Shown piece after piece: positions 182 to 4,444 of a DNA stretch of 64,000 nt. The stretch is from Miltoncostaea marina (lineage in GTDB: Bacteria; Actinomycetota; Thermoleophilia; Miltoncostaeales; Miltoncostaeaceae), in the NCBI RefSeq assembly GCF_018141525.1, contig NZ_CP064655.1, positions 2,698,501 through 2,762,500 on the forward strand. Direction: 5' to 3'. Numbering within the stretch: the stretch's first letter is position 1; each line of letters opens with the position of its first letter. Under the pieces are notes generated by a model. It had not been told where the DNA came from, made no database searches, and was given only the letters and a program-made list of their open reading frames with translations. The position numbers and the translations under genes were made by a program.

Positions 182-1102
182 TTATGGCGACGGCATCGCC
201 GCGGCCATGTCGCCGAGCTCGGCGCGGGCGAAGTCCATGAAGGCCGAGGTGACCCGCTTGGGCGTGCGCCCCGCGTGGCGCACGGCGAAGAAGTGTCGCT
301 CGAGCCCCGGGCCCTCGAGGCGCAGCGCCACCAGGGTGCCTTCGGCCACCTCGCGCTCCACCGCCAGCCGCGAGATCACGGTGATGCCGAAGCCGTCGAG
401 CACCGCCGCCTTCACCGACTGCTGCAGCCCGAGCTCCATCGCCACGTTGAGGTCGCGGTCGCGCACGCCGCTGCCGCGCAGCGCCGCCTCGACCACCGAC
501 CGCACGCCCGAGCCCTCCTGCTGGATGAGCATCGGCTCGGCCACCAGCTCGTCGAGGCCGACCGACCCCCGGCCGGCCAGCCGGTGCCCCGGCGGCACGA
601 TCGCCACGAGCTCGTCGCGCACGAAGGGCTCGAACACCAGCCCGCGCTGGGGCCGGGCGGCGCCCACGACGCCCAGCTCCAGCTCGTCGTCGAGCACCCG
701 CTCGCACACGGTCTGCGTGTCGCTGACCGCGAGGCTCACCCGCACGTCGGGGTGCGCCGCGTGGAAGGCGCCCAGCAGCCGCGGCAGCAGCACCTCCCCC
801 GGGCCGGTCGAGGAGCCGAGCACCAGCCGCCCGGCCACCCTGGTGCCGATCTCCCCCATCTCACGCTCGAGCTCCGCCTCGAGGCCGATCATCCGCTTCG
901 CGTAGCGGTAGACGACCTCGCCGGCCTCCGTCACGGCCACCCTCCGGCCGCTGCGGTCGAGCAGCCGGTGGCCGAGGCGCTCCTCGAGCGAGCGGATCTG
1001 GAACGACACCGCGGGCTGGGAGACCTCGAGCTCCTCGGCCGCCTGGGAGAAGGAGCCCTTGTCGACGACGGTCCGGAACGTGAGCAGCTGGCGCAGGTCC
1101 AC
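182..1102 (-). CDS. LysR-family transcriptional regulator
   Basis: 306 residues, the usual LysR length. Residues 1-60 form the winged helix-turn-helix: DLRQLLTFRTVVDKGSFSQA, then EELEVSQPAVSFQIRSLEERL with the typical SQPAVS recognition helix. A linker helix leads into the periplasmic-binding-protein-like effector domain (about 90-300). The start is GTG at 1102. The effector is unknown. LysR proteins usually act on a neighbouring or divergent gene, so candidates are the FAD oxidoreductase downstream and lon, which is divergent across a 109-bp gap. The two palindromes in that gap have no T-N11-A LysR core, so I do not assign them to this protein. Confidence 0.93.
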   Translation of the reverse strand: MDLRQLLTFRTVVDKGSFSQAAEELEVSQPAVSFQIRSLEERLGHRLLDRSGRRVAVTEAGEVVYRYAKRMIGLEAELEREMGEIGTRVAGRLVLGSSTGPGEVLLPRLLGAFHAAHPDVRVSLAVSDTQTVCERVLDDELELGVVGAARPQRGLVFEPFVRDELVAIVPPGHRLAGRGSVGLDELVAEPMLIQQEGSGVRSVVEAALRGSGVRDRDLNVAMELGLQQSVKAAVLDGFGITVISRLAVEREVAEGTLVALRLEGPGLERHFFAVRHAGRTPKRVTSAFMDFARAELGDMAAAMPSP

Positions 1103-1127
1103 CGCCGGATCCTACTGGGCGCCCGCG

Positions 1128-1156
1128 TTGCACCCATCGGTTACAAGGGGTAACCT
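1128..1156 (+). promoter_or_regulatory. Candidate lon promoter
   Basis: TTGCAC (1128-1133) and TAACCT (1151-1156) are separated by 17 bp, a plausible sigma-70-type -35/-10 pair. The first GGTTAC palindrome covers the end of the spacer and the -10, as expected for a repressor site. The -10 match is weak, so this is a moderate inference. Confidence 0.4.
1139..1155. promoter_or_regulatory. Palindromic operator 1 upstream of lon (GGTTAC-N5-GTAACC)
   Basis: GGTTACAAGGGGTAACC is a perfect 6-bp inverted repeat with a 5-bp spacer. It is repeated 28 bp downstream with identical arms and a different spacer, so the arms look like the recognised part. It lies in the lysR/lon divergent gap over the candidate -10. 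It resembles neither the HspR HAIR consensus (CTTGAGT-N7-ACTCAAG) nor the ClgR site known for lon in some actinobacteria. Confidence 0.7.
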
Positions 1157-1166
1157 CCCGCAAGGT

Positions 1167-1183
1167 GGTTACGCGAGGTAACC
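1167..1183. promoter_or_regulatory. Palindromic operator 2 upstream of lon (GGTTAC-N5-GTAACC)
   Basis: GGTTACGCGAGGTAACC is the second copy. Its arms match operator 1 exactly and its centre is 28 bp downstream, close to the expected transcription start of lon. Two sites on one face-related spacing suggest cooperative binding by a dimeric regulator. The regulator is not identified. Confidence 0.7.
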
Positions 1184-1211
1184 GTTCCTTCCACAAGGAG
1201 ACGACAGGTCA

Positions 1212-3545
1212 ATGAACCAGGACGACCGTCCGACCATCACCCTCCCGGTCCTCCCGCTCGACGACGCCGTCGTGCTGCCGGGCACGAGCGTGACCTTCCC
1301 GGTGACCTCGCCCGAGCAGGCGGAGGCGCTCGACGGCGCCGTGGACGGGCGCATCCTGCTCGTCCCCCGCATCGACGGACGCTTCGCGGCCCTCGGCGTC
1401 GTGGCGGCGGTCGTCGGCGAGGTGACCCTGCCCGGCGGCGCGCGCGGCGTCGCCATCGAGGCGCTGCACCGCGCCGAGCTCGGTCCTGCCCTCGGCGGGA
1501 CCGCGGGGCTGCGGGTGGCCGCGCGCGAGCGGCCCGACCCGGACGACCCGGGGCCCGAGGCCGCCGCCCTGGCGCGGGAGTACCGCGCCGTCGTGGAGGA
1601 GGTCGCCGACCTGCGCGGCGACCGCGCCCGCGTGGCGCACTTCCTGGCCGGCATCGGCCACCCCGGGCGGCTCGCCGACACGGCGGGCTACGCCCCCGAG
1701 ATCCCCGTCGAGCGCAAGCTCGCCCTGCTCGAGGCCGTCGAGGTCGTCGCGCGCCTGCGGCTGGCCATCGACGCCCAGCGCGAGCGGCTGGCCGACGCGA
1801 GCCTGCGGCGGCGCATCCGCGAGGACGTCACCGAGAACCTCGACCGCACCCAGCGCGAGATGCTGCTGCGCCGCCAGCTCGAGGCGATCCGCCGCGAGCT
1901 CGGCGAGGAGGCCGACGGCGGGGACGACTGGGCCGCGCGCATCGCCGCCTCCGGCATGCCCGCGGCCGCGCGAGCCGAGGCCGAGCGCGAGCTCGGGCGC
2001 CTGGAGCGCCAGCCCGAGGGCGCCGAGGCCGGGATGATCCGCACCTACCTCGAGTGGATGGTCTCGCTGCCCTGGGACGCCCGCTCGGAGGAGCACCTCG
2101 ACGTGGCGGCCGCCCGCGAGGTGCTCGACGCCGACCACGCGGGCCTCGAGGAGGTCAAGGAGCGCATCCTCGAGTACCTCGCCGTGCGCCGGCTGCGCCG
2201 CGAGCGGGGCATGGACGAGGGCCGCGGCGGCGTGATCCTGACGCTCGCCGGCCCGCCCGGGACCGGCAAGACGTCGCTCGGCCAGTCGGTGGCCCGGGCG
2301 CTCGGGCGCGAGTTCGCGCGCATCAGCCTCGGCGGCATCCGCGACGAGGCCGAGATCCGGGGCCACCGGCGCACCTACGTCGGCGCGCTGCCCGGGCGGC
2401 TGGTGCGCGCGCTGCGTGAGGCCGGCACCCGCAACCCGGTGATCATGCTCGACGAGGTCGACAAGGTCGGCGCCGACTGGCGCGGCGACCCGTCGTCGGC
2501 GCTGCTCGAGGTGCTCGACCCGGCGCAGAACCACTCCTTCCGCGACCACTACCTCGACGTGGAGCTCGACCTGTCCGAGGTGCTCTTCATCGCCACCGCG
2601 AACGTGGTCGACACGATCCCGGCGCCGCTGCTCGACCGCATGGAGGTCATCGCGCTCGACGGCTACACCGAGGACGAGAAGCTGGCGATCGCCCGGGGCT
2701 ACCTGCTGCCCCGCCAGATCGAGCGCAACGGCCTGCGCCCGGACGAGGTCGAGATGGACGACGACGCCGTCCGCGCCGTGATCGGCGACTACACCCGCGA
2801 GGCCGGCGTGCGGAACCTCGAGCGCGAGCTCGGCAAGGTGCTGCGCAAGGTGGCGCGCCGGGTGGCCGAGGGCCAGGAGGGCCGCGTGCGCATCGGCACG
2901 GCGGAGATCGAGGACGCCCTGGGGCGGCCCCGCTTCCACCACGAGGCGGCCGAGCGCACGGCCACGCCGGGCGTGGCCACCGGCCTGGCCGTGACGGGCA
3001 CGGGCGGCGACGTCCTGTTCGTCGAGGCGAGCGCGATGCCCGCCGACGGCCCCGGCGAGCGGCTGGTGATCACCGGCCAGCTCGGCGACGTCATGCGCGA
3101 GTCGGCGCGCATCGCCCTCTCGTGGACCCGGTCCCACGCAGCCGAGATCGGCGTCGACCCCGACGCGCTCGCCGGCAGGGAGGTGCACCTGCACGTGCCC
3201 GCCGGCGCGGTGCCGAAGGACGGCCCCTCGGCCGGCGTCACGATGGTCACGGCGCTCGCGTCGCTGGCCTCGGGGCGCGCGGTGCGCCCGACGGTCGGGA
3301 TGACCGGCGAGGTGACGCTCCAGGGCCGGGTGCTGCCGATCGGTGGCCTCAAGCAGAAGGTGCTGGCCGCCCACCGGGCCGGGCTCACGGACGTCGTGAT
3401 CCCGGAGCGCAACCGGCGCGACCTGGACGACGTGCCGGCGGCGGTGCTCGAGCAGGTGCGCATCCACCCCGTGCTCACCGTGCGGGAGGTGCTCGACGTC
3501 GCCCTCGAGCCCGCCTGCGACCGCGGCGAGGCGCTCGCGGCGTAG
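1212..3545 (+). CDS. lon: ATP-dependent Lon protease
   Basis: 777 residues, a typical LonA. It degrades misfolded and regulatory proteins in the cytoplasm, driven by ATP. The N-terminal LON substrate-binding domain (about 9-190, [15 protein letters not shown]) is followed by helical linkers. The AAA+ module has Walker [10 protein letters not shown] near residue 348 and Walker [10 protein letters not shown] near 412. The C-terminal protease domain has the catalytic Ser in DGPSAGVTM (near 672) and the catalytic Lys in [11 protein letters not shown] (near 715). ATG at 1212 has AAGGAG upstream (1195-1200). An HxlR regulator follows after 25 bp and may be cotranscribed. The twin palindromes upstream suggest dedicated control, probably stress-linked. 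Confidence 0.97.
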
Positions 3546-3570
3546 CGCCGGACAGGGCAGGATCACGGCG

Positions 3571-3930
3571 ATGGACCGCTGTCGCTCACGCCCGCAGGTG
3601 TGCCACCGCTACCAGCGCGCGGCCGAGCTCCTCGGCCGCCGCTGGAGCGCGGCGGTGATCCGGGCGGCCATGGAGGGCCCCGCCCGGTTCACCGAGATCC
3701 GCTCCTCCGTGGAGGGGCTGTCGGCGCGCCTGCTCGCGGAACGGCTGCGCGAGCTGGAGGCCGCGGGGCTGATGGAGCGGCGCGAGCTGGGAGGCGGCGC
3801 GGTGGAGTACCGCCTCACCGAGAAGGGCCGGGCCCTGTCGCGCGTCGTGCGGGAGATCGAGGCCTGGGTGGCGGACTGGGAGCCCGAGGGCGCGCCCGCC
3901 CGCGACCCCTCCCGCGGCGGGACGCGATGA
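3571..3930 (+). CDS. HxlR-family (MarR-like winged-helix) transcriptional regulator
   Basis: 119 residues. The N-terminal CRSRPQVCHRYQRAAELLGRRW matches the HxlR pattern in which a Cys precedes the winged helix and a conserved 'GxRWS/T' segment starts helix 1. FTEIRSSVEGLSARLLAERLRELEAAGLMER is the recognition helix and wing. YRLTEKGRAL is the typical family C-terminal motif. The Cys residues near the N-terminus suggest redox or electrophile sensing, as in YodB/HypR-type members (inference). The stop codon overlaps the start of the ruined PPOX gene by 4 nt, so the pair was once a regulator-oxidoreductase operon. Confidence 0.9.
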   Translation: MDRCRSRPQVCHRYQRAAELLGRRWSAAVIRAAMEGPARFTEIRSSVEGLSARLLAERLRELEAAGLMERRELGGGAVEYRLTEKGRALSRVVREIEAWVADWEPEGAPARDPSRGGTR

Positions 3931-4230
3931 GCCGCATCCCCGCGCCGGTCCGGGCGCTGCCGGCGGCGCCGAACCCCGCGCACCTCGCCACGGTCCTCCC
4001 GGACGGCGCGCCGCACTCCTCGCGCGACGACCCTACGAACAGTGCGACGTCCGCTGGCACGTCGTGGAGCGACTGAGGGGCGACGCCGCCCTCGGGGTGG
4101 CCGACCGGCTGGGCGTGAAGTACACCGGCCGCCCCTCTCCGGTCCGATCGCCCGCTTCGCCGGCCTACGTGGTGGAGGGCGCGCAGGCGCACCACCTGGA
4201 GCCGCCCGTCACGCCCGACCGACGGGCGGG
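3927..4230 (+). pseudogene. Remnant of a PPOX-class (pyridoxamine-phosphate-oxidase-fold, F420/FMN) oxidoreductase
   Basis: ATG at 3927 overlaps the hxlR stop (ATGA) and opens with the family N-terminus: IPAPVRALPAAPNPAHLATV then LPDGAPHS (to about 4020). The frame then goes out of register and stops at 4074-4076. In the next frame, 4028 onward encodes the family C-terminal half: RRPYEQCDVRWHVVERLRGD, then ADRLGVKYTGRPSP and YVVEG. About 35-40 residues of the middle beta-barrel are missing and the halves are in different frames. This is an internal deletion plus frameshift, so the product cannot be functional. The end point is approximate. Assignment rests on recalled family pattern, not on a search. 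Confidence 0.75.
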
Positions 4231-4249
4231 CGGGCCCACGGGGCGGGCG

Positions 4250-4444
4250 CTAGCGGGTGCTGAAGTGGTGCTCCTCGCGGTCGCACCAGAAGACGAGGCC
4301 GGTGTCCTCGTGGCGGGCCACGCAGGCGCACTCGCCGCCGTGGTCCGGGCAGGGGCGCCGCACGCGGGAGAGCAGGCCCCAGGGGGCGACCGGATCGGCC
4401 CCCGACGGGAGGTGTTCGACGGCGGTGCGTTCGACGACGGTCAT
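4250..4444 (-). CDS. Small Cys-rich protein, unknown function
   Basis: 64 residues. The first half (MTVVERTAVEHLPSGADPVA) is unremarkable. The second half carries CPDHGGECACVARHEDTG, then FWCDREEHHF, giving four cysteines and several histidines that could form a small metal site. ATG at 4444 overlaps the stop of the upstream dehydratase gene (ATGA), so translation is coupled. It is the last gene of the surface-sugar cluster. I do not recognise the family. Size and Cys/His content suggest a zinc-ribbon-like or regulatory accessory protein (inference only). Confidence 0.6.
   Translation of the reverse strand: MTVVERTAVEHLPSGADPVAPWGLLSRVRRPCPDHGGECACVARHEDTGLVFWCDREEHHFSTR

What the first reader, a model, noticed from the sequence alone, without database searches (positions are those of the whole stretch)
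1139..1183. Twin GGTTAC-N5-GTAACC palindromes controlling lon
Two perfect 17-bp palindromes with the same arms, 28 bp apart centre to centre, cover the candidate -10 and start of lon in the lysR/lon gap. They match neither HAIR nor ClgR sites nor a LysR T-N11-A box. This suggests a distinct repressor of Lon, possibly autoregulated by a stress factor.
Basis: seen in the sequence. Interest (0 to 1): 0.6.

Follow-up and report, generated by a model that had tools for sequence, protein, structure and literature searches.

The report
Redox-type HxlR repressor operators at lon
Two matching palindromes sit on the start of the gene for the Lon protease and are very probably landing sites for a stress-sensing repressor of the HxlR/YodB family encoded right behind lon in the same operon, a control of Lon that I could not find described before.

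Summary
Two perfect GGTTAC-N5-GTAACC palindromes (1139-1155, 1167-1183) lie in the lysR/lon gap, and they are the only exact TTAC-N5-GTAA sites in the 3.37-Mb genome. They recur upstream of this lon paralogue in 9 of 10 family-level loci (own included), against 0.004 expected. In seven of these the right arm of one palindrome is the -10 (TAACxT), exactly 17 bp from a TTGxxx -35. The best candidate regulator is an HxlR/DUF24 (YodB-like) gene 25 bp downstream of lon (3571-3930). It follows lon in the palindrome-bearing relatives. It is missing, together with the palindromes, from the one relative (G011) that keeps lon and the divergent lysR. In Solirubrobacterales without a lon-linked hxlR, nearly the same palindrome (CTTAC-N5-GTAAG) precedes both lon and a CMD(AhpD-like)-hxlR operon. 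Among lon-linked HxlRs, all ten with an S[A/S]R recognition helix have the exact operator and all twenty others lack it. Most likely this is a lon-hxlR operon autorepressed by a YodB-like thiol sensor and derepressed by electrophile or oxidative stress. The novelty is the wiring of lon to a DUF24 sensor. No binding was shown.

The parts
1128..1133 (+). candidate -35 hexamer TTGCAC of the lon promoter
   Evidence: TTGxxx-N17-TAACxT recurs in 7 of 9 palindrome-bearing loci, this genome included; the stricter consensus scan does not report it
1139..1155 (.). operator 1: GGTTAC-AAGGG-GTAACC, lies in the -35/-10 spacer and overlaps the -10
   Evidence: conserved in relatives
1151..1156 (+). candidate -10 hexamer TAACCT, formed by the right arm of operator 1
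   Evidence: same geometry in 7 loci
1167..1183 (.). operator 2: GGTTAC-GCGAG-GTAACC, about +4 to +20 relative to the predicted transcription start
   Evidence: second copy 25-31 bp from the first in most genus- and family-level relatives
1195..1200 (+). ribosome-binding site AAGGAG of lon
   Evidence: seen in sequence
1212..3545 (+). lon, ATP-dependent protease Lon (777 aa)
   Evidence: Pfam Lon_C, AAA, Lon_lid, LON_substr_bdg all above cut-off
3571..3930 (+). hxlR: HxlR/DUF24 (YodB-like) winged-helix regulator, 119 aa, 25 bp after lon; the proposed repressor
   Evidence: Pfam HxlR 77 bits; best PDB match YodB 5hs7, E 2.6e-19, Cys11 aligned to the Cys of YodB's 'MCPKMESAF'; conserved downstream of lon

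Best explanation
The twin palindromes are the operators of the HxlR/DUF24 (YodB-like) regulator encoded by the second gene of the lon-hxlR operon. A dimer binds each TTAC-N5-GTAA site. The first site covers the spacer and -10, the second covers the start of transcription, so RNA polymerase is excluded and lon-hxlR is repressed (negative autoregulation). Modification of the N-terminal cysteine (Cys11, aligned with YodB's sensor Cys6) by quinones or other electrophiles or oxidants is expected to release the repressor. That would raise Lon, which clears damaged proteins, and restore repression through newly made HxlR. Shown here by computation: the sites, their conservation, their promoter geometry, their loss together with the hxlR gene, and the covariation of operator with recognition helix. 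Inferred: binding, repression, the cysteine switch and the inducing signal.
For: (a) The only two exact TTAC-N5-GTAA sites in 3.37 Mb are here. (b) In family f1, 9 of 10 lon loci have the exact core within 120 bp upstream, 0.004 expected; an eleventh, G017, has two exact GTTAC-N5-GTAAC sites just upstream of lon. (c) hxlR follows lon in those loci, while G011 has the same lon and an adjacent lysR but neither hxlR nor palindrome (no match of this HxlR type in G011 at E<=1e-20). (d) In Solirubrobacterales the genome-wide CTTAY-N5-GTAAG scan hits lon in 6 of 8 genomes and an operon containing an HxlR gene in 5 of 8, although those genes are unlinked. (e) Of 30 nearest homologues of that HxlR across the class, 11 have an exact core in the 850 bp upstream, 0.04 expected, and none occurs in 54.5 kb on the other side; the window's hxlR is the only own-genome match at E<=1e-20. 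(f) For lon-linked HxlRs, an S[A/S]R recognition helix goes with the exact operator (10/10) and PPR/SPR/SPT-type helices go without (0/20), Fisher 3e-8 before correcting for phylogeny. (g) The closest solved structure is YodB, a DUF24 redox repressor (PMC8063818).
Against: No binding or expression data exist. Several lon genes with a TTAC/TTAT site have no adjacent hxlR (L018, L019, L028, L029, L031, L037, L045), so linkage is not universal, although five of the eight genomes tested have an unlinked HxlR operon with the motif. More than half of the close HxlR homologues have no exact site upstream. The published YodB site at azoR1 is TACT-N7-AGTA (PMC8063818), not TTAC-N5-GTAA. The match to the B. 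subtilis catE operators is recalled from memory; that paper (10.1128/JB.00409-10) was not held. The window HxlR lacks the C-terminal cysteine that YodB uses for its disulphide. Sequences in the covariation table are related, so its p-value is optimistic.
Confidence: 0.8

Rival explanations
1. The divergent LysR-type regulator (182-1102) uses the two sites as T-N11-A recognition and activation boxes and controls lon.
For: LysR is adjacent and divergent; both sites are T-N11-A dyads (sequence); the spacing of about 28 bp resembles paired LTTR sites.
Against: LysR is adjacent only in G000, G001 and G011; it is about 1 kb away in G002, G008 and G014, and not found upstream of lon in G006, G009 and G018, which keep the palindromes. 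G011 keeps the adjacent LysR but has no palindrome. The sites overlap the -10 and start, an odd place for LTTR activation.
Confidence: 0.06
2. An unlinked regulator (for example ClgR-like XRE, BldD-like, or another HxlR paralogue) binds the sites, and hxlR is only a neighbour.
For: ClgR and BldD sites (from memory) have a similar dyad geometry; the genome holds five HxlR genes and one paralogue has a near-match site in its divergent promoter (G000:358559).
Against: A global regulator should have more than one target, but no other exact site exists in the genome; sites vanish with this hxlR in G011, and operator type tracks its recognition helix.
Confidence: 0.1
3. The palindromes act as RNA hairpins in the lon leader (thermometer or stability element).
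For: Each can form a 6-bp stem with a 5-nt loop; site 2 is inside the predicted leader.
Against: Site 1 is upstream of the predicted start and contains the -10; arms keep the same letters rather than only their pairing; some copies break the pairing (TTAC-GAAAG-ATAA in L018); the same motif lies in front of unrelated operons.
Confidence: 0.03

Closest known systems
Bacillus subtilis YodB (MarR/DUF24 repressor of azoR1, catDE and others)
   Same: Best solved-structure match (5hs7, E 2.6e-19) with a sensor-type N-terminal Cys followed by a LLG(R/K)RW start and a very similar recognition helix (SARLLAERLRELE vs SQKMLAERLKELE). YodB senses quinones and diamide (PMC8063818).
   Different: YodB's azoR1 site is TACT-N7-AGTA (PMC8063818); targets are quinone detoxification genes, not lon. 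The window protein has Cys4 and Cys11 but no C-terminal partner Cys.
B. subtilis CatR/YodB control of catDE (two inverted repeats, recalled as TTAC-N5-GTAA at the -35 and at the start of transcription; Chi et al. 2010)
   Same: If recalled correctly: same core and spacing, same two-site arrangement in the promoter.
   Different: Target is a catechol dioxygenase operon; here the target is lon with hxlR in the same operon. The paper was not held, so this is a lead and not a test.
QsrR (Staphylococcus aureus YodB-family quinone sensor; 4hqm, 4hqe)
   Same: Same family, sequence match E 2e-9, N-terminal Cys region aligned.
   Different: Different operator and regulon (from memory).
HspR/HAIR and ClgR control of lon in other Actinobacteria (from memory)
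   Same: Stress control of lon.
   Different: Different site sequences and different regulator families; a HAIR-like box is seen at the Conexibacter lon (L045) but not here.

Membership tests
HxlR/DUF24 family of winged-helix regulators (the regulator) | HxlR-like HTH domain (PF01638) above cut-off | tested here: met
   77.3 bits against a cut-off of 20.8
YodB-type redox-sensing DUF24 repressors | N-terminal sensor cysteine aligned to YodB Cys6 | tested here: met
   Cys11 aligned in phmmer with 5hs7; Cys at this position in all aligned family-f1 members
YodB-type redox-sensing DUF24 repressors | C-terminal partner Cys (YodB Cys101) for an intersubunit disulphide | tested here: not met
   only Cys4 and Cys11 in the 119-aa protein; so it is called YodB-like, not a 2-Cys YodB
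YodB-type redox-sensing DUF24 repressors | binds an inverted repeat in the target promoter and is released by thiol modification | not testable with these tools
   needs EMSA with and without quinone or diamide
DUF24 operators of the TTAC-N5-GTAA kind | core TTAC-N5-GTAA associated with the DUF24 gene or its targets | tested here: met
   exact core at lon-hxlR in f1 and at CMD-hxlR operons in Solirubrobacterales
DUF24 operators of the TTAC-N5-GTAA kind | identity with the published CatR/YodB catE operators | not tested
   paper not held; recalled only
LysR-type (LTTR) box | T-N11-A dyad | tested here: met
   both sites fit by sequence
LysR-type (LTTR) box | conserved linkage of the sites with the divergent lysR gene | tested here: not met
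   sites without adjacent lysR in several relatives, adjacent lysR without sites in G011

The most novel reading that the evidence does not exclude
A dedicated, essentially one-target redox circuit: a DUF24 thiol sensor that in this lineage sits in the lon operon and controls nothing else, with Lon in turn degrading the oxidised or alkylated HxlR, so that protease and sensor form a closed homeostatic loop for damaged proteins.
Probability: 0.15. Interest if true: 0.75.

Novelty: new variant of a known kind. Interest (0 to 1): 0.55.

Why it matters
Known control of lon runs through heat-shock and proteostasis regulators. If right, here the protease is wired directly to a thiol/electrophile sensor, with the sensor gene inside the operon. 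That gives a simple explanation of how a poorly studied, largely uncultured class (Thermoleophilia) couples oxidative damage to proteolysis. It also supplies a natural operator/recognition-helix series (S[A/S/D]R helices with TTAC-N5-GTAA, PPR/SPR helices with other lon promoter sequences) for working out DUF24 DNA specificity.

Tried and rejected
LysR as the regulator: rejected by linkage. HspR/HAIR, ClgR and BldD: site sequences differ, and a global regulator does not fit a one-site genome. RNA hairpin: rejected by position of site 1 and by broken copies. The lon2 paralogue (G000:2794771 and the orthologues in L114-L127) does not carry the motif as far as examined. The stricter promoter scan found no promoter and no terminator in 1050-4300, so the -35/-10 rest on comparison. 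A first attempt to use an unsaved HMM gave no hits and was redone; a CMD translation was off by one base and redone. The Chi 2010 and HypR papers were not held. Literature searches for HxlR with a lon gene and operon, and for Thermoleophilia with Lon, returned nothing. No structure prediction was run, because the sequence match to YodB was strong.

Full report
What is there. The window holds GGTTACAAGGGGTAACC at 1139-1155 and GGTTACGCGAGGTAACC at 1167-1183, between a divergent lysR (182-1102) and lon (1212-3545). A genome scan shows these are the only two exact TTAC-N5-GTAA sites in 3,370,274 bases, with none for the reversed control pattern. With up to two mismatches to the 17-mer there are 15 places against 8 for the control, so the weaker matches are mostly background. 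The best of them (GGTTCCCTCTTGTAACC, G000:358559) lies between a luciferase-like monooxygenase and a divergent second hxlR gene.

Conservation. A search for this lon in 41 genomes gave ten well-covered family-f1 loci including our own. Nine carry an exact TTAC-N5-GTAA within 120 bp of lon, 0.004 expected from shuffles. Most have two copies 25 to 31 bp apart. An exact GTTAC-N5-GTAAC scan of the same 41 genomes finds 16 sites: thirteen at lon in family f1 (G000, G001, G002, G003, G006, G008, G014, G017, G018), one elsewhere in f1 (G007, before a polyketide-cyclase-like gene), and two in the distant G039. The spacer bases vary freely while the arms do not. The second lon paralogue (about 50% identical) does not have the motif in the loci examined.

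Promoter anatomy. In seven of the nine, TTGxxx-N17-TAACxT is found with the TAAC supplied by the right arm of a palindrome. In the window this is TTGCAC 1128-1133 and TAACCT 1151-1156, placing the transcription start near 1163 and the second palindrome at about +4 to +20. This is a classical repressor arrangement. The strict sigma-70 scan does not call it, so it rests on comparison.

Which regulator. An HxlR/DUF24 gene begins 25 bp after lon (3571-3930). It follows lon in the palindrome-bearing f1 loci examined. G011 keeps the same lon and an adjacent lysR but has neither hxlR nor palindrome. LysR, in contrast, is adjacent only in G000, G001 and G011, and is distant or not found in the others. 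In Solirubrobacterales, where lon often has no hxlR behind it, lon carries a close variant, CTTAY-N5-GTAAG. A scan of eight such genomes for that variant hits lon in six and, unlinked, an operon ending in an HxlR gene in five. In the best-read example the first gene of that operon is a carboxymuconolactone-decarboxylase/AhpD-like protein, and the same gene pair is found in 13 of 30 homologous loci. Remaining sites lie before sigma-70 genes (two genomes), an F420-dependent NADP oxidoreductase, an MFS transporter, an MpaB-like oxygenase and an acetyltransferase; some may be chance. Starting instead from the HxlR protein, 11 of 30 nearest homologues in the class have an exact core in the 850 bp upstream (0.04 expected; none in 54.5 kb on the other side), either before the CMD gene or directly before hxlR. 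The window's hxlR is the only gene in its genome matching that query at E<=1e-20, out of five HxlR genes.

Protein-operator covariation. The lon-linked HxlRs fall into two kinds. Ten have the recognition helix [LI]S[A/S]R[L/M]L and all ten lon promoters have an exact TTAC-N5-GTAA. Twenty have PPRT, SPRM, SPTT and similar helices and none has an exact site (Fisher 3e-8, not corrected for relatedness). One locus (L055) has the N-terminus of the second kind but an ISARML helix, and has the TTAC operator; its HxlR reading frame is cut by the contig end and looks degraded, so this contrast is suggestive only. Unlinked HxlRs with exact sites have SDR helices; a number of SDR proteins have no exact site, so the helix is compatible with, not sufficient for, the operator.

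How it most likely works. The closest solved protein is YodB (5hs7, E 2.6e-19), with the window's Cys11 aligned to the YodB sensor cysteine. YodB is a DUF24 dimer that loses DNA affinity on S-alkylation of Cys6 by quinones or on disulphide formation (PMC8063818; PMC10458429). By analogy, HxlR represses its own lon-hxlR operon from two operators and lets go on thiol modification. The window protein has no C-terminal cysteine, so the YodB disulphide with Cys101 is not available; S-alkylation, a mixed disulphide, or a Cys4-Cys11 pair are possible. Cys4 is not kept in all relatives. Binding, repression and the signal are inferred.

What is known. YodB's azoR1 site is TACT-N7-AGTA (PMC8063818). From memory, the two catE sites of CatR and YodB were reported as TTAC-N5-GTAA at the -35 and at the start of transcription (Chi et al. 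2010, 10.1128/JB.00409-10), which would be the same operator and layout; the paper was not held and this must be checked. Searches for HxlR together with a lon gene, and for Thermoleophilia with Lon, found no paper. The library is partial, so this is weak evidence of novelty.

Verdict. The operator and regulator family are of a known kind; the wiring to lon is, as far as I could find, new.

Noticed in passing
L030, L051, L052, L108, L020, L047, L078 (lon upstream regions): lon promoters followed by the second kind of HxlR (CRxCEPVPEEV N-terminus, PPR/SPR helix) share other elements, TTTTTGTAG-N-TAGTA or CTAACTACACTTTCGTAAGCT, possibly the operators of that HxlR subgroup.
   Followed up: partly
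L024, L028, L029, L031, L037 (upstream of lon): A conserved (C)GACTGAGATC-like element lies roughly 50 bp upstream of the lon -10 in Solirubrobacterales, separate from the TTAC palindrome.
   Followed up: no
G000:C1:358559-358575 (L130): The nearest imperfect copy (GGTTCCCTCTTGTAACC) sits between a luciferase-like monooxygenase and a divergent hxlR paralogue, suggesting a second HxlR circuit with a related operator.
   Followed up: partly
L155 (G045) and L159 (G048), about position 1500: CTTAC-N5-GTAAG also precedes sigma-70 genes (regions 1.2 to 4) in two Solirubrobacterales genomes.
   Followed up: partly
G000:C1:2794771-2797086: The genome has a second lon gene about 50% identical to the first; its orthologues in relatives lack the TTAC motif.
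   Followed up: partly
L045, about 80 bp upstream of lon (Conexibacter arvalis): A HAIR-like inverted repeat CTTGAGCGAGCTTGACTCAA lies upstream of the TTAC palindrome, suggesting joint HspR and HxlR control there.
   Followed up: no
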